Shown here in pieces: positions 439 to 12,750 of a stretch of 30,494 nt of DNA; within the stretch, counting starts at the first letter, position 1, and every line of letters starts with the position of its first letter. The notes under the pieces were generated by a model that saw only the letters and a program-made list of their open reading frames with translations, made no database searches and was not told the DNA's origin. Source of the DNA: a virus; the IMG/VR virus record IMGVR_UViG_3300030107_005002, positions 1 to 30,494 of that record, one strand, 5' to 3'. Made by a program: the position numbers and the translations under genes.

Positions 439-1062
439 ATGTCAACAATGACTGAAACACTAGAAAACACAGAGGCTTTGTTTATCCCAGATGGGAATGG
501 TACAGAGTCTACACCAAAGTATGTTCCAATGGCTGAAGGTGATCACTTAGGTCACATTATTGAGGCACGTACAATTACAAGGGAATTTACAAAGAATAAA
601 AGAACAGTAAAAGCATCTATCTTTAATTTTAAAGTTAAGATTGCAGATGAAAATAGACATAACAAGTATCATGTAAAGGGAGAAGAAATACATGGTGAGC
701 ATTACATTGGTAAAGAAATAGTTGCTGATGGAGTGTTTAGATACTTAGAGCCTACTAGTGGAGATACATTTGAATCTAATTCGGCTGAGAATAAAAAGTA
801 TCTTATGTTTTGTCAATCTATTGGAATGGAAATACCAATGGAGAAACGTACAATCAATGGTAAGACTGTAGAAGTTCAGCTATTACCTGATATTACGATT
901 GATAACTTAAATGGAACACCTGTAGTTGCAGTTGTAGGAAGAGGTCAAGATTGGACAGATGACGAAGGCAATGCAAGACCATCATATAAGGTTAAGTTTA
1001 CAAAGCTTTGGCAAGATGGTAAACGTATAGCTGCAAAGGGTGATGATGACCTTCCGTTCTAA
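439..1062 (+). CDS. SSB-like single-stranded DNA-binding protein
   Basis: This 207-aa soluble protein ends in DDDLPF (residues 202-207), an acidic tip closely resembling the C-terminal peptide of bacterial and phage SSBs (E. coli SSB ends DDDIPF) that recruits partner proteins. The body is rich in beta-strand-type segments, such as 'KASIFNFKVKI' and 'PSYKVKFTKLW', and in basic and aromatic residues, compatible with an OB fold, although no classic SSB signature is obvious. The start follows a clear GGAG ribosome site. The gene lies directly after the annealing protein and its 3' end overlaps a small HTH gene. It probably coats ssDNA during phage replication and recombination. The family assignment rests on the tail and context; a DUF669-like recombination accessory protein is an alternative. 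Confidence 0.68.
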   Translation: MSTMTETLENTEALFIPDGNGTESTPKYVPMAEGDHLGHIIEARTITREFTKNKRTVKASIFNFKVKIADENRHNKYHVKGEEIHGEHYIGKEIVADGVFRYLEPTSGDTFESNSAENKKYLMFCQSIGMEIPMEKRTINGKTVEVQLLPDITIDNLNGTPVVAVVGRGQDWTDDEGNARPSYKVKFTKLWQDGKRIAAKGDDDLPF

Positions 1063-1180
1063 GTTAAAGAAAAAGCTTGCACAGGTAGCTGTAAAAGCAT
1101 TAAAAATGAAACCTGATACAGTAGCAAAAAGACTTAATATAAGCAGAGCTACAGTATATAGGTATATTAAAAATTCGTAG
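1043..1180 (+). CDS. Small resolvase-type helix-turn-helix protein
   Basis: A 45-codon frame starts with a double ATG (1043 and 1046) inside the last 20 bases of the SSB-like gene, in a different frame. The peptide is very basic at the N-terminus ('KLKKKLAQVAVKALK') and ends in 'TVAKRLNISRATVYRYIKN'. This fits a Hin/resolvase-style helix-turn-helix: an A-x-x-L turn, then S-R-A-T-V-Y-R-Y-I as the recognition helix. A free-standing HTH this small could regulate phage transcription by DNA binding, and the structured gene-free region immediately downstream is a possible target. No good Shine-Dalgarno is visible, and translation is probably coupled to the upstream gene. The residue pattern is strongly non-random, but a tiny overlapping gene needs experimental confirmation. 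Confidence 0.6.
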   Translation: MMTFRSKLKKKLAQVAVKALKMKPDTVAKRLNISRATVYRYIKNS

Positions 1181-1189
1181 GCATAAGTG

Positions 1190-1244
1190 GTAATCTCAGA
1201 GAAGAATAAACACTTTCTCCACAATGGGTAGGATTGGAGATTAC
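1190..1244 (+). repeat. Inverted repeat GTAATCTC / GAGATTAC
   Basis: Perfect 8-base arms at 1190-1197 and 1237-1244 enclose 39 bases. A nested arm pair, GAGAA (1199-1203) and TTCTC (1215-1219), could stack inside, giving a branched hairpin in the + strand transcript. Confidence 0.55.
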
Positions 1245-1352
1245 ACAATATATACCAATATGAAAATCTTATGTCAAAGACGAATAGATTAGCTGGCTGG
1301 AAGTTGCAGCATCTTGGGGATAATAAAGCCAAGTGGTAAAAAACTCTAATAA

Positions 1353-1436
1353 GAGAGCTGATACAAAGGGCATTAAAGGATGTCCTATATTATAATTGAA
1401 CAAGGGAAACGTAAATTAAAATAGGTATTAGCTCTC
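1353..1436 (+). repeat. Inverted repeat GAGAGCTGATAC / GTATTAGCTCTC
   Basis: Twelve-base arms at 1353-1364 and 1425-1436 pair fully, with a single G-U wobble, around a 60-base loop. A short AGGATGTCCT palindrome lies in the loop at about 1376-1385. The length of the pairing makes chance less likely, but no terminator-style U tract follows. Confidence 0.55.
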
Positions 1437-1451
1437 ACAAAATTAACAGAG

Positions 1452-1522
1452 GGGGGTATAAATCTTTTTGGGCATTGTCTGTACTTCGAGGATATAGATG
1501 AGGAGAAGAAAGAAATACCCCC
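1452..1522 (+). repeat. Two-part stem GGGGGTAT / ATACCCCC upstream of a membrane-protein gene
   Basis: Eight-base arms at 1452-1459 and 1515-1522 pair perfectly. After a small internal loop (AAA opposite A), a second helix of seven pairs forms between TCTTTTT (1463-1469) and AGAAAGA (1507-1513), with one G-U. The apical loop is about 37 bases. The G/C-run stem stands out in AT-rich DNA and sits about 20 bases before the ribosome site of the next gene, so it could influence its translation or act as an RNA processing or stability element. Confidence 0.55.
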
Positions 1523-1557
1523 TAATGTTATCACAACCAATATAAGGAGAAAACGAG

Positions 1558-1887
1558 ATGAGAGGATTAGTGTTAATAGTATTATTCGCAAGTGTATTTG
1601 CAATTTCTTATCAATACACAGTACATGACAAACATGTAAAAGAGGCAGATAAGATTAGTAGTACATATATTAAACCTAGTTTGAAAAATGATAAATATTT
1701 AACTTTAAATGAACGTGCAACATTGCTTAGATTAGATGTATTATTATCTGAGATTATAAGTAAAAGACATCCACAAACAAGGACTATTAAGATAATAGAA
1801 ATTTCAAATAAGTATGTTGAGTTAAATAAAAAAAGAAATACTGAGATAGATAAGCTATTAAAAGAATTGAAAGAATTAACTGATTAA
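1558..1887 (+). CDS. Small membrane-anchored helical protein, unknown function
   Basis: The 109-aa product starts with one hydrophobic segment (residues about 3-18, 'GLVLIVLFASVFAISYQY') with a basic residue before it. This is a signal anchor or an uncleaved signal peptide, with no lipobox cysteine. The rest is charged and strongly helical, ending in a coiled-coil-like, lysine/glutamate-rich tail ('KLLKELKELTD'). It would sit in the inner membrane with a helical domain facing the periplasm or cytoplasm. The start has a good AAGGAG site and follows the structured region. No family is recognised. Membrane-anchored small early phage proteins often serve in superinfection exclusion, lysis control or host takeover, but nothing here decides between these. 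Confidence 0.72.
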   Translation: MRGLVLIVLFASVFAISYQYTVHDKHVKEADKISSTYIKPSLKNDKYLTLNERATLLRLDVLLSEIISKRHPQTRTIKIIEISNKYVELNKKRNTEIDKLLKELKELTD

Positions 1888-1976
1888 AATTATGAGCAGG
1901 TACGCTTCACGTTTACCTTATGATGAACAGCAACTGGTCTTTGCACTTTCCACATAGCTGCCTGCTCTACTTTTAA
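1888..1976 (+). other. Short gap with 7-base inverted repeat
   Basis: Arms GAGCAGG (1894-1900) and CCTGCTC (1961-1967) are perfect complements 74 bases apart end to end, a tRNA-like size. The inside does not fold into D or T arms and no TTCRA loop is present, so it is not called a tRNA. A 21-codon frame (1892-1957) lacks a ribosome site. The repeat could be another structured RNA element like those at 1190-1522. Confidence 0.4.
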
Positions 1977-2219
1977 ATGAAGAATCAAGAACAGAGAGAT
2001 TTAGAGAAAAGATTGAAAAAATTAGAAAAGGATAGTCACCCTCCAGTTGACTGGCAAGAACTTATATTTGCCAATATTGAAAGAATAGAAGAATTAGAAG
2101 ATGCTAATAATCAGTTATTAGACATTATAAAAAACTTGACAAGAGAGAAGAAGGAACTAAAGGAAAGAGTAGAGATAATGGAAGTTATTATCTCAGACAT
2201 ATTTCCAACTAATGACTAA
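1977..2219 (+). CDS. Small coiled-coil protein, unknown function
   Basis: The 80-aa product is almost entirely heptad-like and highly charged. It has two helical stretches ('RDLEKRLKKLEKD' and about residues 30-70 with 'IERIEELEDANNQLLDI') separated by a short proline-containing loop ('HPPVDW'). Such proteins usually oligomerise or bind a partner protein. No catalytic motif or family is recognised. The ATG follows TAA and T-rich sequence without an evident Shine-Dalgarno, so expression may depend on the upstream gene or on the inverted repeat just before it. It is followed 12 bases later by another small charged helical protein with a strong ribosome site, so the two look like members of one small-gene operon. 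Confidence 0.62.
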   Translation: MKNQEQRDLEKRLKKLEKDSHPPVDWQELIFANIERIEELEDANNQLLDIIKNLTREKKELKERVEIMEVIISDIFPTND

Positions 2220-2231
2220 CAAGGAGATAAC

Positions 2232-2444
2232 ATGGGAAGAGCAATAGATCAAGACAACAGACTAGATGATCATGAAAGAAGGCTAGAAATACTAGAAGGT
2301 GTTGTTGCAGAGTTGTCTGATGCACTTGTAAATACTAAACAAACAAAAAATGTAGATTTACATGATGCACTAGATGAACATGAGAGAGAACTTAGAAAAG
2401 CTAAGCCAAAAAGAAAATCAAAAAAGACAGTAGAGGTTGACTAG
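2232..2444 (+). CDS. Small acidic/basic helical protein, unknown function
   Basis: This 70-aa protein has an excellent AAGGAG ribosome site 7 bases before ATG. The N-terminal half ('LDDHERRLEILEGVVAELSD') is a coiled coil. A second, similar segment ('DLHDALDEHERELRKA') repeats the D-x-H-E-R-x-L pattern, suggesting an internal duplication. The C-terminus ('KPKRKSKKTVEV') is strongly basic and could bind nucleic acid. No family is recognised. It sits in a row of small, probably early, accessory genes between the annealing/SSB pair and the methyltransferase. Confidence 0.65.
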   Translation: MGRAIDQDNRLDDHERRLEILEGVVAELSDALVNTKQTKNVDLHDALDEHERELRKAKPKRKSKKTVEVD

Positions 2445-2482
2445 TATTGCACAAAAGATAAGAGATTATCTGAAGAAGAAGT

Positions 2483-2710
2483 ATGGCAATTCCAGTTATA
2501 AAACTTCTACAGGAAAAACCATTAAATCTGTACGTATGCAATATGTGCAAGACAAGGACAATAAAAAGTAAGTTTTCTTGGAAGAGTTGGTTTACTGGAA
2601 CTGAATTAATAATATGTAGAGATTGTGCCTATAAAGAGTCATTTGGTACAAAGAAAATAAAGAAAGCAAAAAAAGAGAGAATACTTGAGCAGAAAGAAAT
2701 TAACGAATAA
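2483..2710 (+). CDS. Small zinc-ribbon-like protein
   Basis: The 75-aa product carries two CxxC knuckles, C19-x2-C22 ('CNMC') and C45-x2-C48 ('CRDC'), 22 residues apart. This is the spacing expected for a single structural zinc site of zinc-ribbon type. The C-terminal third is a lysine-rich helix ('KKIKKAKKERILEQKE') suited to nucleic acid or protein binding. The family is not recognised. Comparable small phage zinc proteins often act as transcription modulators or inhibitors of host enzymes; that is only an inference. The ribosome site is a weak GAAGAAG run. The end overlaps the next gene by 26 bases in another frame. Confidence 0.66.
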   Translation: MAIPVIKLLQEKPLNLYVCNMCKTRTIKSKFSWKSWFTGTELIICRDCAYKESFGTKKIKKAKKERILEQKEINE

Positions 2711-2912
2711 AGAAATTACTAATGCTATTGAAGGTCTTAGCAGGAACGATCAGATATTGTATAAGGAAATTATTGAAATGAAACAAGCTTTTGCCTTATA
2801 TTTAGATTACAGAAAAGAATCCTTTAAGGAAGATACAGAAGGATTTAATGATTTCGTCAAAGCTAAAACAGAAGAGTTTGAAAAACAACAACGATCTAAA
2901 ATTAAAACATGA
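2685..2912 (+). CDS. Small helical protein, TTG start, unknown function
   Basis: This 75-aa protein is chosen to start at TTG 2685, preceded by an AGAGAG purine stretch. The frame then runs 'MSRKKLTNKEITNAIEGLS' and continues as charged helices to 'EKQQRSKIKT'. It overlaps the zinc-ribbon gene at its start and the next gene by 65 bases at its end. That amount of overlap is larger than elsewhere in this region and makes the exact boundaries of the neighbours uncertain. No family is recognised. The composition (many K, E and aromatic residues, no hydrophobic segment) indicates a soluble, probably oligomeric protein. Confidence 0.6.
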   Translation: MSRKKLTNKEITNAIEGLSRNDQILYKEIIEMKQAFALYLDYRKESFKEDTEGFNDFVKAKTEEFEKQQRSKIKT

Positions 2913-3267
2913 ACTTGATTCTGTATATATAGATTCAAGTGGTGGTAAACATCTGAAATATGATGAGGCATTGTGTGCTGAAGCACAAATACAGGCATGC
3001 ATACAACGTAAATTAGAAGAAAGAGAAAAGGTCATGGAAATAGTAGAACTAGTAATGCAGATTCTTAAAAGTGAAAATTGGGGAGTTTATTATAAGAACC
3101 AACCAATACAGCCTCTTGAAATGCAAGATGGCAATTCACTTTATAAGGTAAATCAAGTTGACGAAAGTGATATTGAAGAAGCAATAGAGACAGCGTTAAC
3201 AAAGGATAAGCCTTGGGAATCTTCGCAGATAAATTCGAGTCAGAACAACAACTCCACGAGTGGTTGA
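2848..3267 (+). CDS. Hypothetical early protein, start uncertain
   Basis: The 139-aa frame uses ATG 2848 with AAGGA five bases upstream. An alternative TTG at 2878 would shorten it by 10 residues and reduce the large overlap with the previous gene. The middle (about residues 25-100) looks globular: 'ELDSVYIDSSGGKHLKYDEA' followed by two long helices and 'ENWGVYYKNQPIQPLEM'. The C-terminus is acidic, then Ser/Asn-rich and probably disordered. There are two Cys but no metal-binding pattern. The family is not recognised. It overlaps the following small gene by 55 bases, so three consecutive genes here share coding DNA. Confidence 0.62.
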   Translation: MISSKLKQKSLKNNNDLKLKHELDSVYIDSSGGKHLKYDEALCAEAQIQACIQRKLEEREKVMEIVELVMQILKSENWGVYYKNQPIQPLEMQDGNSLYKVNQVDESDIEEAIETALTKDKPWESSQINSSQNNNSTSG

Positions 3268-3425
3268 TAACTTTCTATGAGAAACAGTTAGTTTCGTTTC
3301 TCAGTGACATTGGAGGCGTTACATCGTATGGTGTAAAAATAACACCGACCCTTGTAAAGTCTACAATTAAAAGGTATTCTCAACTATTGGAGAATAATAA
3401 TGTTACTGATTGGAAACAGTCTTGA
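3213..3425 (+). CDS. Small hypothetical protein, TTG start
   Basis: The 70-aa frame begins at TTG 3213, preceded by AAAGGA at a good distance, which supports this start despite a 55-base overlap with the previous gene. The product ('[20 protein letters not shown]...') contains aromatic and hydrophobic residues typical of a folded helical domain, then '[20 protein letters not shown]'. No motif or family is recognised. It overlaps the methyltransferase start by 26 bases, so it is likely translated with it and may be a small partner, though nothing shows interaction directly. Confidence 0.55.
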
Positions 3426-4308
3426 AAAAATAGACGAAATAGAAGAAAAGTCAGTACAAGCTATCGTAACTTCACCACCTTATTGGGGTCTTAGAGACTA
3501 CAAGGCAGATGGTCAGTTAGGTGAGGAGCTTGTTCCTGAAGAATTTGTAAAAAACCTCACCACATTGTTCAATAAATCAAAACGAGTACTTAAAGATGAT
3601 GGCACTTTATGGCTGAATATAGGTGATACTTATTTCGGTGCTAAAGGTGGTCATTGGGATGGTGGCAATTCTATTACTAATGATAGTACAGGTGGTAATT
3701 ATAGAATGCAACGTAAAGCACCACCAAAACATCCTAGATTAAAAACTAAGGACTTAACAGGAGTGCCTTGGATGTTAGCATTTTCTATGCAAAAAGATGG
3801 ATGGTATTTACGTCAAGATATTATATGGCATAAGCCTAATCCAATGCCAGAGGCAGTTAAAGATAGATGTGTTAAGTCACATGAGTATATATTTTTATTC
3901 TCATTAAAGCCTAGGTATTATTTTGATTATAAAGCAATACAAGAACCAGCAGCTTATGCTGGAGATAATAGATCATTAAGAAATGATGCTAGAAGAGGTG
4001 AACCAATGGCAAATGCTATCGCAGCCAATACGCAGCCAACACAAGAGTTTAGAAATAAACGTAGTATATGGACTATCAATACTGCTCAATCAGGTGAGGC
4101 TCACTTTGCTGTATTTCCTGAGAAAATTCCTGAACTTTGTATAAAAGCAGGAACAAAAGAGGGAGACGTGGTACTTGATCCTTTTATGGGTAGTGGTACT
4201 ACTGCAAGTGTTGCACAAAGACTTGGTAGAAAATGGATAGGCATTGAACTTAATGAAGACTATGCACAAATAATAAACAAGAAAACAGCACAAGGAGAGC
4301 TATTTTAA
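3400..4308 (+). CDS. Beta-class DNA methyltransferase (amino-methyltransferase, N4-cytosine or N6-adenine)
   Basis: The 302-aa protein transfers a methyl group from S-adenosylmethionine to an exocyclic amino group in DNA. The catalytic motif [11 protein letters not shown] (SPPY at residues 25-28) is near the N-terminus. The SAM-binding motif DPFMGSGTT (260-268) followed by '[13 protein letters not shown]' is near the C-terminus. This order defines the beta class, and length is normal for a solitary enzyme. TSPPY is more often seen in N4-cytosine enzymes, but N6-adenine cannot be excluded. No restriction endonuclease is adjacent. It lies within the replication region and ends TAATG, sharing one base with the helicase start, so the two are translationally coupled. 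Protection of phage DNA from host restriction is the likely role. The recognition sequence cannot be predicted. Confidence 0.9.
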
Positions 4309-5648
4309 TGAACAAGTTACCAAATGAAGCAGATATAGAGATTGCTGTCATTGGTGGCGTTATAAACAATCCTCGTAAATATAATGATATAGCTAAATAC
4401 ATTGTTTCTAATGATGTATGGTATGAAAATAAATCAAGAGTGCTATGGGAAGTAATTACAGGAATGGTCAAAAGAAGAGAGCATATAGATATGATTACAC
4501 TTACATCTACATTAACTGAAGATGATAAAGTTGTAGGAGTAGATGCTGTCTTTATAGTTGATTGTACAAATAATGCACCAACTGAATCAGCATTAGAGGT
4601 TTATGCTAAAAAGATATATGAAAAATATCTATTAAGATTAGTAGTAGACCAAGCAAAAGAAATAGAAGAAACAGCACTTGATAATAAAGTTAATGCAATG
4701 GATGTTCTTGTATCAGCACATACATCTATTGGTGAGCTTATAAACCTTAGACCTGATAGTACATTTGATATTAATGAGGCTCTTGGTGATGCAATAGAGT
4801 CAATAAGAAATACAGATAAGCTATTAATAAAAACTGGATTCAAGAATGTTGATGACTTTGCAGGTGGATTAACAAGAGGTGAGATAACAATAGTTGGTGG
4901 TAGACCAGGCCATGGTAAGTCAACTATGCTTTTAAATATGTTAAGCAATGTTTTAACATCTAAAAAGAAAGTAATGCTATTTAACAGAGAGCTTACAAAC
5001 GTAGAGGTCTTGAAGAAACTATTAGCATTGGAATCTGGAAAGCTATCATATGGAATGATACGTCAAGGGATGTATGAGCAAAGTCAATTACAAGAGCTTG
5101 ATAGAGTTCGTGAATTTATAGCAAAGAAATATTGCACAGAAAGATTTAGAATGTTTGACCAAATAAAAGACTTTCCTACATCTGCAACAGAAATAAAGAA
5201 ATTTAAACCAGATGTTATATTTGATGACTATATTCAATTAATAACACCTGCAGGTAAAGAAGACCAAAGAAGATTACAATTAGAGAGAATTGTTAATGAT
5301 TACAAATGGATTGCAAAAGAATATAAATGCTCAGTAATTTTAGCTTCACAATTAAACAGGGCTTTGGAAACAAGAGGAACACAAAGACCCCAATTATCTG
5401 ATATAGCAGAAAGTGGAGCAATAGAACAAGTTGCTGAAAATGTATTCTTTGTTTTCTATCCATATAAGGTTAGTGGAAAACCTGAAGAGAAAAACGCAAT
5501 GACACTTGTAGCTGCTAAGGTTAGATATGGAGAAACAGGATCAGTACAAATGGCTTATGATGGAGATAAATGTAAAATTTATAATGACACAGAAGAGCTG
5601 TTTGCACCATCCTTAACGGAGGCAGAACAAGATGAAATCCCCTTTTAA
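4308..5648 (+). CDS. DnaB-like replicative DNA helicase
   Basis: This is a 446-aa hexameric RecA-fold helicase that unwinds DNA 5'-3' at the phage fork. Residues 1-~150 form the DnaB N-terminal helical domain ('PNEADIEIAVIGGVINNP...'). The motor domain follows: Walker A GGRPGHGKST (197-206, K204), the H1a-like 'MLFNRELTNVEVLKKLLA', Walker B 'PDVIFDDYIQL' (D306/D307), motif H3 'SVILASQLNRALETRGTQRP' and 'LSDIAESGAIEQVAENVFFV' of H4. It is close in length to bacterial DnaB. The last residues are DEIPF, resembling an SSB C-terminal tip; those codons overlap the start of the next gene. No helicase loader or separate primase is seen in the window. Confidence 0.93.
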   Translation: MNKLPNEADIEIAVIGGVINNPRKYNDIAKYIVSNDVWYENKSRVLWEVITGMVKRREHIDMITLTSTLTEDDKVVGVDAVFIVDCTNNAPTESALEVYAKKIYEKYLLRLVVDQAKEIEETALDNKVNAMDVLVSAHTSIGELINLRPDSTFDINEALGDAIESIRNTDKLLIKTGFKNVDDFAGGLTRGEITIVGGRPGHGKSTMLLNMLSNVLTSKKKVMLFNRELTNVEVLKKLLALESGKLSYGMIRQGMYEQSQLQELDRVREFIAKKYCTERFRMFDQIKDFPTSATEIKKFKPDVIFDDYIQLITPAGKEDQRRLQLERIVNDYKWIAKEYKCSVILASQLNRALETRGTQRPQLSDIAESGAIEQVAENVFFVFYPYKVSGKPEEKNAMTLVAAKVRYGETGSVQMAYDGDKCKIYNDTEELFAPSLTEAEQDEIPF

Positions 5649-6153
5649 AAAATGTATAGGTATTGACCCAGGAAAAGGTGGTGGTATAGCCATCATCACA
5701 GATGAGACAGTAACCCTTCATAATTGTCCACGTACAGTAGACGATATGGCTCTCCTGTTAGGTATGTGTCTCAACGATGTCGCAGCATATAGGACTCAAG
5801 TATTCTTAGAAAAAGTATGGGCATTCCCTACAGATGGTAGGGCTGGGTCATTTACCTTTGGTGAGAATTATGGACAATGGCAAGGAATACTTGCATCACA
5901 TGAACTAAAACCAAAACTAGTAACACCAAAAGAATGGCAGTCACATTTCGATATTAAAAAAGGTTTAAAAAAGGATGTAAGAAAGAAAATTTTAAAGCAG
6001 ATAGCTAAAGATAAATGTCCAAATATTAAAAAAGTAACACTTAAAACTGCTGATGCACTACTTATTGCTATTTATGGCATAGAGGCTCATTTAAGCTATG
6101 AAAAGGATTTACCTTGGGTAGAGCCTAATAAAGAAGAAAAAGTAGCTATATAG
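5632..6153 (+). CDS. RuvC-like Holliday junction resolvase
   Basis: The 173-aa protein has the RNase H-like fold of RuvC-type endonucleases that cut four-way junctions or branched replication intermediates before packaging. 'GIDPGKGGGIA' gives D12, 'QVFLEKVWAFPTDGRAG' gives the second acidic residue E60, and 'KTADALLIAIYG' gives D141. Length is close to E. coli RuvC (173). The position three residues before D141, usually acidic in RuvC, is Lys here, so the metal site differs. The start overlaps the helicase by 17 bases and follows a GGAGG-like site. It is the last gene of the + strand operon. A role in resolving recombination intermediates made by the upstream annealing protein is inferred. 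Confidence 0.87.
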   Translation: MKSPFKKCIGIDPGKGGGIAIITDETVTLHNCPRTVDDMALLLGMCLNDVAAYRTQVFLEKVWAFPTDGRAGSFTFGENYGQWQGILASHELKPKLVTPKEWQSHFDIKKGLKKDVRKKILKQIAKDKCPNIKKVTLKTADALLIAIYGIEAHLSYEKDLPWVEPNKEEKVAI

Positions 6154-6196
6154 TCCTATTTTGGCTTAATAACGTGATAGTGATTAAATAGTAGGA
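6154..6196. terminator. Possible weak bidirectional terminator between converging operons
   Basis: The two opposed operons meet here with a 30-base spacer. TCCTA (6154-6158, followed by TTTT) can pair with TAGGA (6192-6196, preceded by AAATA), so both strands would have a short stem beside A/T runs. The stem is only five pairs and the loop is long, so the call relies mainly on the convergent layout. Confidence 0.25.
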
Positions 6197-9100
6197 TTAG
6201 AAAAATATAACTTTTTATATTTTTGCTTTCTTATGATTTTGTTGAAATGCCTTTCTCTAAATTTGTGAATCTTTTCAAGTTTTGTTGCAAGCATCTTATC
6301 TTCAGGTGTCAACCAATCATAAAATTGATTTAATAATGTTTTTGAAGTACCTTTTCTACTATCTGAAATATTTAAAGGACTGTAGTGAGACATAACTTGA
6401 CGCACAGCTCTTTTTGCCTTTTTATATAATCCACGTTGAGTCATAAATCTATTCTCTCTTGACATAATTTGCATAGAGCTACTAATAGCATCCCAATAAC
6501 TTTCTGCTATTTCTTCATCTGTTCCAAACATTAGTTTATTTTTTAAGTCTCTATAAAAAGGTGCTTTTCTACTTACGATACCATCACCAGAATATAATTC
6601 CATCCCACGTGATTCTTTAAACTTTCTAACTAGTTGTCTCATATTGTTAAAATCTTTAAAGTATGGAGACCTTGTTGTCTTTATTAACTGATCAGCTTGA
6701 TTAATGGCTACAAATGTTCTTTTTGACCAATCTAAAGTAGCATCAGAGAGAGATTTTCCTTCTTTATTCATTAAGTTATATTGTTTCTTTGCCTCTAAAA
6801 TATTTCTTATAACAATTGGTTCAGAAAATGGTACTGCAAGTTCTTTCTCATAAGGATTAAGACCTGGTATTACTTCAGAAAATAAACCAAAAAATTCTGA
6901 TCTCCATAAGTTTAATAATATGTTTGAAAACCCATCATCTTGAGTAAGTTCGTCTCCTGTTGGTTTTTGTTTTCCAAATGCTTCTTGGTAAAACCAGTAT
7001 AAAAGTTCACCACTTATAGCATGAGATACAGTTGCCCTTAATAAAGGTTTAAAGTTTCCATATTGAGCAATAGGCTTGATAACATTTCTATACATATCTA
7101 TTGTTGTAGCCATTGCCATTCTATGGAATAATGTTAAAGGTTTTACTTCCTTTTTAGACATCCATAATGGAAGCATAGCAACAGATGTTCCACCTTGAGC
7201 AGATACATGAGAAAAGTGTCCTACTTTATGCATTATCTCAGCAAGCATAGCTTTGTTTTCAGGCGTAGTAAAATCTTTTGTTTTTTCAATAAAATTTATT
7301 TGATCATCTGATAAGTGCCATACCTCACTCATAACATTTTTCATTCTATCTTTTGTTGTGCCCATTTTAAATAGCCCTGACTCTCCACGAACCTTAGCCA
7401 TTGCTTCAGTAAAATATAAGTGTCCAGCATGAGAAGATATAATTCTATTTAAATTTTCTGTTTTAGTCATTAGGTTAAATTGAAACATTTTCCTTAAATT
7501 AAATCTTCCAAAACCTTTATCTTCGAGTTCTAATGTTCTAGCACCATACTCTAACTGTCCTTTACGTCTTGCATCGTTCCATGATGTAGCATCCATTGCA
7601 TGAAATATTGCTTTTGCTGTTCTTCTAAATCCATATAAAGAGATAGCCCTAGGTATACCAATAGCAAGGTTTTTAAGACCAGAGGTTGGAGATGACAATC
7701 CTGCAACAGCTGAAATACTTGCAAGAGAAGAACCAATTCTACTTCCTGGTAATGTTAATGGATCGGCTGTATCTAGCCCAAGCTGTCTTTTAATTGACAA
7801 GTCGGCATATCTAACCATTTCATTATTTTCACCTAATCTTGCTATTTTACTTTTTGATCCTAAGTCCATAAGATGTTGACTTCCTTCATTAGTCCACTCA
7901 GGAAAATAAGTAAGATTTGCAAGATATTTAGACATACGATTTACATATGCTTCTCCAGTTCCCTGTAGAGTGTTGTCATATACATCAATTTCTATCAATC
8001 TTCCCCTATTATCTGTAACCTTTATTTTCTCATCTAAGAGACCTTTACGTGGAATTAAGTGAGGATTTTTAACATTTCCATAACCAAATTTTAAAACATT
8101 ATAAATTTCATTTCCTATTTCCTCCCTTAAATCTTTTCCTTTTTGTGATTCTGGGTCTAAATATTCTTTTTCTATACGTTTTTTATCTGCGTCTGTTTTT
8201 CCTTCTTTCAGTGCATATTTTTTTGCAACTCTCTTAACTTCATTATTTGCTAAATTTCTTATATAATTATTATCAGGTTTGTCTAAAACATATTTATAAA
8301 AATCTTTAGTAACTGAACGTGTCATATACCCATCAACATATACTTCTTTCATTTCTTTTAAAATACGTTTTGCATCTTCATGTGTATGATGTTGTAATAA
8401 TATTTTTCTTCTATGATCCCAAATTTCTTCTGTATATTTATTCCAAACTTCCCAAGCTCTATATTCATCAGAATTTTTATCTATTCCTTTTCCATCTTTA
8501 TCTCCATATATTTTTTCATAAAAATCCTTTTGCTGCTCAGTCATTGTTCCATCTTCATAGTTTCTTTTAGCTCTTTCTTTATCAAAGATAATAGATGCAT
8601 CGTCAGATTTTTTTCTACCTACAATTGGAACTTTTCCTTTTACCTTAGTTTTTAAATCTTTTGCAGTTTCTATAGAACCTTTATCAAGCGTATTTTTTAC
8701 AATGGATAAAGCTTCTTGGCCTGGCCCATTGAATAAAACATGTTCAGCATATTCATGATTAATTATTTTTTCTGACAATGCTCTTCCAGCCTTACCTCCA
8801 AACTTTCTTAAAACTAACCATACAGGCATAACACCTCTTCCATAAGCCCATAAAAGTTTATCAGTTCTACTTTTAACACCATCTTCTTGGGTTAATAGTG
8901 CTATATTAGTAAAAGATGTATCCTTCTTAGTAACAGGATCATAATTATTCCTAATAAAAGACTCATAAGTTTTAACAATAAAATCATCTGCATTCTCATA
9001 TTTTCCATCTTCAACACCCATAAGCTCTAACCTAGATTTTGCAATATCTGGATGAATATTATATTTATTATTTATATCTTCTATCCTTCTTACAACTGGC

Positions 9101-12100
9101 TCAGTATTACGTTTATTTGGCCCTTTATTAAGCCCATGACCTGTAATAAATTCTTCATACTGTTGCATTTGATCTAGTGTTATCTTATCTATATTATATG
9201 TTGTATCTCCAAATATCTCTATTCTTTTTGCTCTCCAGTTCTTATAATCTCCATCTCTAACCTTTCTATCTAGGCTATTTATTTCTCCACCTGCATGCAA
9301 ATTATCACTTATTTCCTTTATTTGATCTCTTACAGTAGGATTTTCTTTAGATGTTTGATATTTAGTAATAAAATCTTTTCTTTGTGTCTCTGGCAAATCA
9401 CCTTTTAATACTTTTTCACCAAGAATACGAGTAACATCAGTTTTATTATGTACTCCAAGTTTATGCTTTAAATGACTCCAAAATTTTCTAAGGAAATTTT
9501 TAACCTTAGATACTGTTGTTTTATTTTTAAGCCTTCCAGCAACATATTCTCCAATAGATTGAACCATGTTTTCTTCTGGACTTTTACTTCTATCTACATT
9601 TTTAAACATACGTTCACCATCACGTATAATATCTTTACTTTTCTTATCTCCAAAGGCACGTAGAACATCAACAACGTGGTGAGAAACCTCATGAGGAATT
9701 GTATCTATTGCAGCTTTACCCTCAGCTATTTCAATAAGACGACCAGTAATACGACCAAGAACTTCTTCTCCTTGAAATTTTCCTAAATCTTTTTTTAGTT
9801 GTATATCAAGCTCAGGATATTTTTTCTTAAAAAATTCTATCTGTTTTTTTAATTGGTCAACACTAATATTTAGAGTTTTAGCAGCAGACTCAAGTTGATA
9901 TTTAACTTCTTTAGTTCCAAATAATTCTGATATTTTAACTCTTCCATCTTCTACTGAAATATTTTCATTTAAAATATCTTTTAAAATTCCACTAAGCTGA
10001 ACTTCCGTAGAGGGTTTTAAAGTTCCTTTGTAAAATGTATCAGCAGTATCTGTTGTACCTTCGTGTCCAAGGAAATATTTAAGAAATTCTTTTTGCCTAT
10101 GAGTCATGCCTATCTCATCTGCTCTTGTTTCTATTAGTTTTCTTGAATCTTCTATCTTGATATTTTCTTTATACTTCTTATCTTTAAGAATTTTACTATG
10201 TGTATTTTTATCAAAAATAACATCACTATTTTTTAAACCTTTTTCATTGGCAAGTTTTTTAATATTGTCATATGTTTTTTTAGTAATTTCAACTTTTCTT
10301 GGATTACCACCACCCTTTCCTATATAAGAAGCTTTTACATGATAATAATATTTAGTATCCTTACCAACTTTTAAAGACTTAATATCTTCAACTTTTAATT
10401 TATTTAATTCTGCTGTTCTTATAGAAAGACCTTCTTCCAAATGGAGATCAGCTGAAATGTGCATTTCTTTTTGTTGTGTAGAAGATTTATCAAACTCAGG
10501 AAGCTTTGATATAGTTTTTTTAATATCTTTTTTTAAATCTATGCCTGCTATATATTCTTTTCTTTCTTGTGCTCTTTCTTTTATTATTTGGTTGGCAAGT
10601 CTAAAGGCATCTTTTAAATCTTTTTGTCTAAAGGGTCTGTTTGTAAGCCCTTGATATGTAGTCCATTCTTTGAATTTTGAAAATGCAGTTGCAACTGCAG
10701 GTGCTGAACCTTTTAGACCTTCAATCTTACCATCACCTATTGCTTGTATTATTCTTGTTATATCGTTACCTGTGAGCTGTTCAGTTGATCTTTTTCCAAG
10801 ATATTCCAATCCCTTTGCTATATATCTAACAGCACTTCTACTTCCTTCACCTTGGTTTACCCATTCTAATAATATATCTTTAGTATTACTATCTTTAATT
10901 TCTGGAATATATGTACTCTCAGTGGACTCTCTATTAAAATCTTCTATTGTTTTTTCAACCTCAGACCAATCTCTCTTCTTTATTTTATTCTTTATTTTAC
11001 CAGCAACGTCACTTACAATTTGTTGTATTCTTCCAGAGATAGACGATATATCTGTTTTGCTTCCTGCTACTGAAGGAGCATCAAAATCTTGTATAGCTTT
11101 TTTCTCATCTAAAATTAATTTTTGAGCTTTTGCTCTATCTGTATCAACATCAAGATTTAAATTGTCAATATCAGCATATTCTAATATATTGCCATCTTGA
11201 TCTTTTCTTATACTTCCATCCTTATTTCGCATTATATTTTCTTCAATAACACGATTTTTCTTCCAAATACGATCTGCATTAAATCCATGTATTGATGCTT
11301 GATTTATTGCATTCTCACCACTCCATTGATCTTGTATCTTATGAAGTGCCTCTTTCTGCTTCTCAAATTTATGCAATAAGGTCTTATACATTGGATTAAC
11401 CTCATCCTTAGCATGCTCTATAAGTTTTTCAAGAGTTCCAATTTGTTTTAAGACATTACTAATAATCTTTTTTGCACGAGCAGGAGAAGCTTCTGTGATC
11501 CCATCTTTATGATCATCAATAAGAGATTTTGTTTCTTTTCTTGCGTTCTCTAGCTCATCTCTAAGGTTTAAATATTGTTCATCTACATTGGTTTTTTCTT
11601 GAGCTATTATATCTGCAGCTGCATCAATAGCATCAGCCTCATCAATTTCTCCCTTCTCTCTTTTAGCCCTTGCCTGTGCTCTTAGGTCTAATTCTGACTT
11701 ATCTTTAATTTGACTATCACGTGTCTTACCATTTTCATCAACACCAAGCTTTATTTTTTCAGCTTCTTCTAAAAGTTTATAATTTTCTAAACTTTTATTA
11801 AATGTTTTAGACATGCCTTTTGAGAGTCCAAATAAACCAAGTTCAGCAATAAATCCTTTTTTAACATCATCCCATCTTACATCTTCACCTTTTGCTATTT
11901 GGTGAACAATATCACCTGCATTAAATGCTGCATCTTCAGCAACTATTTGTCCTAAATCTCCAGTAGCCCCTAATGTGATCTTTTCTCCAAATGTTAATGT
12001 TCTAGTAGCATCTTTAGCCCCTCTTGTTCCAAGTTTACCTGCTTTAGTAAATTTATTTAAAGAATGTGCATGCTTATAAGCGAGACCTCCACCTGCTACT

Positions 12101-12750
12101 CCTGCAAGTCCACCAAGTACTCCTCCATGAACAACGCCAGAACCAATAGCACTTAATACATCTTCCCCATTGCTAGCTGCTTGCATTCCATTCATAGCAC
12201 CTTCATAAGTACCCATAGTAGCACCTTGCCTTGTTGCATTTTCAACCATTTTTTGTGCTAAAGATTGTTCTATTTTTTTCTTTGCAGCCACCTTAGCAGT
12301 TGTAGCACCAAATCCTTTTAATAATAAATTCCCAGCACCACTACCAGCACCTAATGCAATAATATCAAGTGGCATAAAAAATGACAATCCCATAGAAAGA
12401 ACATCTTCCATAAAATCTGGATCATATTCAGAAAGATTAAATCTTTGCTCTCCAGTTAAAGCTTTCTCAGTCATACCTGTAAGAGAATTTGTATATGCAG
12501 CTTTCATCCAATCAGCAGAATTTTCATCAATTCCCCAATCAAACCATTCTTTAAAACCATTTATAGCACTAGCATCTGTGTTTACATTTTTCTTTTTAGT
12601 TCCTCTTTCAAGATCAACTTCATGCCATGTAAGATCAGGATTTTTAGTTTTGACAAGACTATATACTTTTTTATCGTCTAAATCATTAGACCATGGATTT
12701 TCTGCACGATATGTATCAAGCTCTTTTTTTACATTTAATGGTATTGACAT
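6184..12750 (-). CDS. Giant polyvalent-type internal virion/ejection protein with recombinase-like and zincin domains
   Basis: This is a 2188-aa protein, far longer than T7 gp16 (1318 aa), with an AAAGGAGA site before ATG. Visible order: an N-terminal region followed by hydrophobic segments (about 117-150) and a Gly-rich segment (200-225, 'VVHGGVLGGLAGVAGGGL'); coiled-coil helices (about 310-600); a tyrosine-recombinase-like domain (about 627-912) with R778, K812, R870, H896 and candidate nucleophile Y907; a metallopeptidase motif HEVSHH (1020-1025); then mostly helical sequence with a hydrophobic patch near 1670-1720 ('SSPTSGLKNLAIGIPRAISL') that resembles large polyvalent-protein-associated (LPD38-like) regions. 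It is the last gene of the structural operon, after three internal-virion-like genes, so injection with the DNA is likely. The enzymatic roles are inferred. No lytic transglycosylase motif was recognised. Confidence 0.78.
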   Translation of the reverse strand: MSIPLNVKKELDTYRAENPWSNDLDDKKVYSLVKTKNPDLTWHEVDLERGTKKKNVNTDASAINGFKEWFDWGIDENSADWMKAAYTNSLTGMTEKALTGEQRFNLSEYDPDFMEDVLSMGLSFFMPLDIIALGAGSGAGNLLLKGFGATTAKVAAKKKIEQSLAQKMVENATRQGATMGTYEGAMNGMQAASNGEDVLSAIGSGVVHGGVLGGLAGVAGGGLAYKHAHSLNKFTKAGKLGTRGAKDATRTLTFGEKITLGATGDLGQIVAEDAAFNAGDIVHQIAKGEDVRWDDVKKGFIAELGLFGLSKGMSKTFNKSLENYKLLEEAEKIKLGVDENGKTRDSQIKDKSELDLRAQARAKREKGEIDEADAIDAAADIIAQEKTNVDEQYLNLRDELENARKETKSLIDDHKDGITEASPARAKKIISNVLKQIGTLEKLIEHAKDEVNPMYKTLLHKFEKQKEALHKIQDQWSGENAINQASIHGFNADRIWKKNRVIEENIMRNKDGSIRKDQDGNILEYADIDNLNLDVDTDRAKAQKLILDEKKAIQDFDAPSVAGSKTDISSISGRIQQIVSDVAGKIKNKIKKRDWSEVEKTIEDFNRESTESTYIPEIKDSNTKDILLEWVNQGEGSRSAVRYIAKGLEYLGKRSTEQLTGNDITRIIQAIGDGKIEGLKGSAPAVATAFSKFKEWTTYQGLTNRPFRQKDLKDAFRLANQIIKERAQERKEYIAGIDLKKDIKKTISKLPEFDKSSTQQKEMHISADLHLEEGLSIRTAELNKLKVEDIKSLKVGKDTKYYYHVKASYIGKGGGNPRKVEITKKTYDNIKKLANEKGLKNSDVIFDKNTHSKILKDKKYKENIKIEDSRKLIETRADEIGMTHRQKEFLKYFLGHEGTTDTADTFYKGTLKPSTEVQLSGILKDILNENISVEDGRVKISELFGTKEVKYQLESAAKTLNISVDQLKKQIEFFKKKYPELDIQLKKDLGKFQGEEVLGRITGRLIEIAEGKAAIDTIPHEVSHHVVDVLRAFGDKKSKDIIRDGERMFKNVDRSKSPEENMVQSIGEYVAGRLKNKTTVSKVKNFLRKFWSHLKHKLGVHNKTDVTRILGEKVLKGDLPETQRKDFITKYQTSKENPTVRDQIKEISDNLHAGGEINSLDRKVRDGDYKNWRAKRIEIFGDTTYNIDKITLDQMQQYEEFITGHGLNKGPNKRNTEPVVRRIEDINNKYNIHPDIAKSRLELMGVEDGKYENADDFIVKTYESFIRNNYDPVTKKDTSFTNIALLTQEDGVKSRTDKLLWAYGRGVMPVWLVLRKFGGKAGRALSEKIINHEYAEHVLFNGPGQEALSIVKNTLDKGSIETAKDLKTKVKGKVPIVGRKKSDDASIIFDKERAKRNYEDGTMTEQQKDFYEKIYGDKDGKGIDKNSDEYRAWEVWNKYTEEIWDHRRKILLQHHTHEDAKRILKEMKEVYVDGYMTRSVTKDFYKYVLDKPDNNYIRNLANNEVKRVAKKYALKEGKTDADKKRIEKEYLDPESQKGKDLREEIGNEIYNVLKFGYGNVKNPHLIPRKGLLDEKIKVTDNRGRLIEIDVYDNTLQGTGEAYVNRMSKYLANLTYFPEWTNEGSQHLMDLGSKSKIARLGENNEMVRYADLSIKRQLGLDTADPLTLPGSRIGSSLASISAVAGLSSPTSGLKNLAIGIPRAISLYGFRRTAKAIFHAMDATSWNDARRKGQLEYGARTLELEDKGFGRFNLRKMFQFNLMTKTENLNRIISSHAGHLYFTEAMAKVRGESGLFKMGTTKDRMKNVMSEVWHLSDDQINFIEKTKDFTTPENKAMLAEIMHKVGHFSHVSAQGGTSVAMLPLWMSKKEVKPLTLFHRMAMATTIDMYRNVIKPIAQYGNFKPLLRATVSHAISGELLYWFYQEAFGKQKPTGDELTQDDGFSNILLNLWRSEFFGLFSEVIPGLNPYEKELAVPFSEPIVIRNILEAKKQYNLMNKEGKSLSDATLDWSKRTFVAINQADQLIKTTRSPYFKDFNNMRQLVRKFKESRGMELYSGDGIVSRKAPFYRDLKNKLMFGTDEEIAESYWDAISSSMQIMSRENRFMTQRGLYKKAKRAVRQVMSHYSPLNISDSRKGTSKTLLNQFYDWLTPEDKMLATKLEKIHKFRERHFNKIIRKQKYKKLYFSNPTI

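What the first reader, a model, noticed from the sequence alone, without database searches (positions are those of the whole stretch)
9421..9783. Zincin-type metallopeptidase motif HEVSHH in the same giant protein
'IPHEVSHHVVDVLRAF' (H1020-E1021-x-x-H1024) is a canonical HExxH helix with a plausible downstream glutamate ('SIGEYVAGRLKN', about 40 residues later) as third ligand. Zincin domains are known in phage 'polyvalent proteins' that are injected with DNA to counter host factors. Together with the recombinase-like domain ~110 residues earlier, this creates a two-activity protein; the protease could release or activate the neighbouring domain after entry.
Basis: partly seen in the sequence, partly recalled or inferred. 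Interest (0 to 1): 0.7.

Follow-up and report, generated by a model that had tools for sequence, protein, structure and literature searches.

The report
Zinc peptidase domain in phage protein
A giant protein at the end of this phage's tail-gene block carries a well-conserved zinc-peptidase domain next to a DNA-recombinase-like domain, so it looks like a multi-enzyme package that the phage probably injects with its DNA; the peptidase domain itself is of a known general kind.

Summary
The minus-strand ORF 6184-12750 (2188 aa) contains HExxH at H1020-H1024, the only one in the protein. It is not chance: 48 non-redundant homologous domains from viral contigs (fetched partly by motif patterns) share D-T-x-P-H-E-x-x-H almost without exception, and all 15 fetched by the downstream glutamate motif alone still have HExxH. 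AlphaFold with a 44-sequence alignment (pLDDT 84.6) gives the zincin fold; the best aligned PDB rows (Z 5.5-6.7) are mainly zincins (ArdC, PPEP, PprI, lethal factor). Homologues support the neighbouring tyrosine-recombinase domain (PF00589, E 5.6e-14 in one). The two domains form a cassette inside a conserved N/C-terminal frame; one relative lacks both and another lacks the zincin. The domain matches nothing in Pfam, PHROGs or PDB by sequence. Best reading: a polyvalent-type, probably ejected protein with an active zinc peptidase. Processing of the giant protein and attack on a host protein cannot be separated here. Known kind of domain, new family and partner.

The parts
6184..12750 (-). ORF for the 2188-aa giant protein, last gene of the minus-strand tail/structural block
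   Evidence: ORF call; homologues in at least 8 other viral contigs
9373..9912 (-). zincin-like metallopeptidase domain, residues about 947-1126
   Evidence: HMM of 44 relatives, AlphaFold model pLDDT 84.6/pTM 0.79, VIA-align rows mainly zincins
9679..9693 (-). HExxH, H1020-E1021-V-S-H1024
   Evidence: 48/48 relatives
9571..9576 (-). E1059-E1060; E1060 is the preferred third zinc ligand
   Evidence: E1060 48/48, E1059 45/48; at the N-terminus of the second helix after HExxH
9547..9549 (-).
   Evidence: 41/48; K, D or V in the other seven
9991..10833 (-). tyrosine-recombinase-like domain, residues about 640-920 (R778, K812, R870, H896, Y907; box-II His position is E867)
   Evidence: Foldseek top rows Cre (E 0.016, prob 0.97-1.00); homologue L058 PF00589 E 5.6e-14; L055 phrog_216 integrase E 3.5e-5
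11341..12750 (-). conserved N-terminal frame, residues 1-470, with hydrophobic stretches near 115-140 and 198-224
   Evidence: alignment with relatives that differ in the middle; hydropathy
6187..9219 (-). conserved C-terminal frame, residues 1178-2188

Best explanation
The 2188-aa protein is a polyvalent-type giant phage protein, most likely a virion internal (ejection) protein. Its conserved N- and C-terminal frame carries an exchangeable cargo cassette: a tyrosine-recombinase-like DNA enzyme followed by an active zincin peptidase. Zinc is held by H1020, H1024 and probably E1060, with E1021 as general base. After entry the peptidase probably cuts, either within the giant protein (freeing cargo) or a host protein. 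I favour processing of the giant protein only slightly. Shown: the domain, its fold by prediction, conservation, neighbouring domain and modularity. Inferred: presence in the virion, ejection, zinc binding, proteolysis and target.
For: HExxH and E1060 in 48/48 relatives; HExxH kept in 15/15 sequences matching only the pattern without it, and E1060 in 12/12 matching only the pattern without it. Predicted fold has the described polyvalent MPTase order: helix, three strands, HExxH helix, Glu helix (description in PMC5512222). VIA rows are mainly zincins, top ArdC Z 6.7, PPEP-3 Z 6.3; BFVD matches include crAss-like structural proteins and polyvalent-annotated phage proteins. Residues 1000-1090 are the best conserved of 13 segments in four of five pairwise comparisons and second in the fifth. 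Cassette logic: L034 lacks both domains, L033 lacks the zincin, frame retained. The gene lies at the end of the tail block, convergent with replication genes, as N4 vRNAP does.
Against: No zinc, activity, virion or cleavage data. VIA Z values (under 8) and Foldseek PDB E-values (1.5 or more) are weak singly. The profile comparison with the N4 zincin is weak (probability 6.7%, E 0.0054) and pairs the N4 glutamate with E1068 rather than E1060. Frames without the zincin show that processing by it is not universal.
Confidence: 0.6

Rival explanations
1. The zincin is an effector that cleaves a host protein after injection (for example a defence or transcription factor), with no role in processing the giant protein.
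For: The domain is far better conserved than its neighbour in divergent relatives; it occurs with different partners and as a free-standing 119-aa ORF in L102 and two near-identical contigs; N4 vRNAP is reported packaged unprocessed (PMC5512222).
Against: No target known; nearly always embedded inside giant proteins.
Confidence: 0.35
2. The domain keeps the zincin fold as a structural or DNA-binding element and is not a peptidase.
For: E1068 is lost in 7/48; the top structural row is the antirestriction protein ArdC, better known for DNA protection than proteolysis (general knowledge).
Against: HExxH and E1060 are invariant, unexpected for a dead enzyme.
Confidence: 0.15
3. HExxH is a chance motif in a helical region.
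For: Single motif, 6.4% of shuffles contain one; no Pfam or PHROGs match.
Against: Conserved across 48 diverse relatives with a predicted zincin fold.
Confidence: 0.02

Closest known systems
Zincin-like MPTase domains of polyvalent proteins (Iyer et al. 2017, PMC5512222)
   Same: HExxH helix plus a glutamate in a following helix, three-strand sheet, inside giant multi-domain phage proteins
   Different: This family carries the D-T-x-P-H-E motif and matched no Pfam or PHROGs model; the words recombinase and integrase do not occur in that paper's main text. Whether it falls in one of that paper's 12 clades was not tested (its alignments were not available)
HExxH domain of phage N4 virion RNA polymerase
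   Same: HExxH zincin in a giant ejected protein encoded at the end of the late block, convergent with replication genes
   Different: Profile similarity weak; no T7-like RNA polymerase detected by Pfam or PHROGs here; tyrosine-recombinase-like domain instead
Giant proteins of crAss-like phages and relatives
   Same: Among the best viral structure matches
   Different: Some zincin relatives have a DxDGD RNA-polymerase-like motif; no BLAST similarity of the window protein to those outside the zincin region
ArdC (R388), PPEP-1/PPEP-3
   Same: Zincin fold by structural alignment (Z 6.7 and 6.1-6.3)
   Different: No detectable sequence relation; small proteins, not giant phage proteins

Membership tests
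Zincin metallopeptidase (gluzincin type) | HExxH with both histidines and the catalytic glutamate | tested here: met
   48/48 relatives
Zincin metallopeptidase (gluzincin type) | third ligand glutamate in a downstream helix | tested here: inconclusive
   E1060 invariant, E1068 41/48, same predicted helix; coordinates not available to measure a site
Zincin metallopeptidase (gluzincin type) | zincin fold | tested here: met
   AlphaFold topology and VIA rows; a prediction
Zincin metallopeptidase (gluzincin type) | zinc binding and peptidase activity | not testable with these tools
   needs protein
Polyvalent proteins | two or more unrelated activity domains in one phage or plasmid polypeptide | tested here: met
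   zincin and tyrosine-recombinase-like
Polyvalent proteins | delivered into the host with the DNA | not testable with these tools
   only genomic position
Tyrosine recombinases | R...K...HxxR...H/W...Y in a catalytic domain | tested here: inconclusive
   R778, K812, R870, H896, Y907 assigned by eye, box-II His is E867; window protein itself only Integrase_1 E 0.029, below cut-off; L058 PF00589 5.6e-14, above cut-off
N4-type virion RNA polymerase | T7-like RNA polymerase domain | tested here: inconclusive
   no Pfam or PHROGs match in the whole protein, which does not exclude a diverged domain

The most novel reading that the evidence does not exclude
A phage lineage packages a site-specific or topoisomerase-like tyrosine recombinase together with its own zinc peptidase in one ejected protein, and the peptidase frees the recombinase inside the cell so that it can act on the incoming genome (for example circularise or resolve it) before any phage gene is expressed.
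Probability: 0.15. Interest if true: 0.8.

Novelty: new variant of a known kind. Interest (0 to 1): 0.5.

Why it matters
It defines a zincin family of giant phage proteins, not matched by Pfam or PHROGs, with a clear motif for annotating many uncultured viruses, and a fixed cargo slot where natural gains and losses (recombinase plus zincin, a recombinase-like segment alone, neither) make the open question of what these packaged peptidases do testable by comparison and by mutation of one residue.

Tried and rejected
Pfam, PHROGs and NCBIfam scans of the whole protein and Pfam and PHROGs scans of 15 zincin relatives: no real match. tblastn of the whole protein in GenBank phages and of a relative's zincin in plasmids: none; only one faecal phage record, MT835645, matches relatives' zincins. 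Two scans of genome contigs: no relative confirmed. PDB sequence search with 15- and 44-row profiles: no relative. Foldseek alone in PDB gave no significant row for the zincin. The first AlphaFold job with both domains was poor, pLDDT 64.5, so the relative placement of the two domains is unknown. A MAFFT alignment of recombinase segments was visibly unreliable in divergent rows and was not used for residue counts. The ParB-like look of L033 residues 960-1080 got no Pfam or PHROGs support and is not claimed. Literature searches for a recombinase in an ejected virion protein found nothing relevant; the library is partial. Chance motif considered and rejected.

Full report
Observation. H1020, E1021 and H1024 are at 9679-9693, E1068 at 9547-9549. 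HExxH occurs once in the protein; composition predicts 0.07 and 6.4% of shuffles have one, so homologues are needed.

Homologues of the domain. A first relative (L003) shared D-T-x-P-H-E-x-x-H and a downstream G-E-Y. Wider scans brought 15 and then 56 viral contigs. In 48 non-redundant segments D1016, H1020, E1021, H1024 and E1060 are invariant; E1059 is 45/48 and E1068 41/48. Collection was by two patterns, which biases counts, so I split the set: 15 sequences matching only the glutamate pattern all have HExxH, and 12 matching only the HExxH pattern all have E1060, while six of these 12 lack E1068. Segments were cut around an HExxH, but no locus was dropped for lacking one. A search by the C-terminal frame, independent of the zincin, gave nine full-length giants, eight with HExxH (two of these, L056 and L057, look like copies of one virus).

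Fold. AlphaFold with 44 rows gave pLDDT 84.6, pTM 0.79: N-terminal helix, three strands, HExxH helix, a further helix, then the helix starting near residue 1058 that holds E1059, E1060 and E1068. This is the order described for polyvalent-protein MPTases (PMC5512222). VIA-align rows are mainly zincins: ArdC Z 6.7, PPEP-3 6.3, PPEP-1 6.1, PprI 5.9, lethal factor 5.9; a few other rows (a Mycobacterium tuberculosis regulator, YfcM) I did not assign. Z under 8 is modest; Foldseek alone gave nothing significant in PDB. BFVD matches were phage giant proteins, several crAss-like or annotated polyvalent.

Third ligand. E1060 is favoured by invariance and by its place in the first turn of the helix; a profile comparison with the N4 domain instead pairs E1068 with a conserved N4 glutamate, weakly. 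I could not measure distances, so this stays open.

Neighbouring domain. In the window protein the recombinase resemblance is weak by sequence (Integrase_1 E 0.029), but the model's top Foldseek rows are Cre (low-confidence model), and homologues at the same place match Phage_integrase PF00589 at 5.6e-14 (L058, above the curated cut-off) and 1.5e-5 (L059, just below it) and phrog_216 integrase at 3.5e-5 (L055).

Architecture. Residues 1-470 and 1178-2188 align across relatives. Between them L034 (1548 aa) has no recombinase or zincin, and L033 has no zincin (profile E 0.12) but a recombinase-like segment by eye. L054 keeps the zincin at 82% identity over residues 1000-1090 while its upstream domain is 18-19% identical. 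Over five pairwise comparisons segment 1000-1090 is the most conserved of 13 in four; against L060 it is second (71% against 77% for 921-999). The pair therefore behaves as a cargo cassette.

Setting. Upstream genes include a tail fibre (phrog_1980) and an internal-virion-protein-like match (phrog_511); on the other side, convergent, are a DnaB-like helicase and a Holliday junction resolvase. N4 has the same layout around its virion RNA polymerase. This supports, but does not show, a virion ejection protein.

Mechanism. Best: an active zinc peptidase in a polyvalent, probably ejected protein. In-protein processing and host attack are nearly equally likely; N4 vRNAP is reported packaged unprocessed and P1 DdrB processed before packaging (PMC5512222). 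Relatives lacking the zincin argue against an obligate role in assembly.

Novelty. The kind is known. The sequence family is not matched in Pfam, PHROGs or PDB sequences, and I found no report of a tyrosine-recombinase partner in the papers searched.

Noticed in passing
L047, L050, L051, L052 (giant ORFs), also L003: DxDGD motif downstream of the zincin (in L003 seen by eye as YDGDA), suggesting an RNA-polymerase-like barrel in the same giant protein
   Followed up: no
L102:3004-3360: Free-standing 119-aa ORF with the zincin and V at the E1068 position; near-identical in L103 and L104
   Followed up: partly
L003:3-6488: Giant protein with zincin and a GNAT acetyltransferase match (E 1.4e-4)
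   Followed up: no
L034 (G009): Natural 1548-aa version of the giant protein lacking recombinase and zincin
   Followed up: yes
L033 residues 960-1080: ParB-like appearance by eye where relatives have the zincin; no Pfam or PHROGs support
   Followed up: partly
window 3400-4308 (+): DNA methyltransferase (phrog_67, E 3.5e-74)
   Followed up: no
window 439-6153 against 6184-30315: Replication genes convergent with the structural block, as around N4 vRNAP
   Followed up: partly
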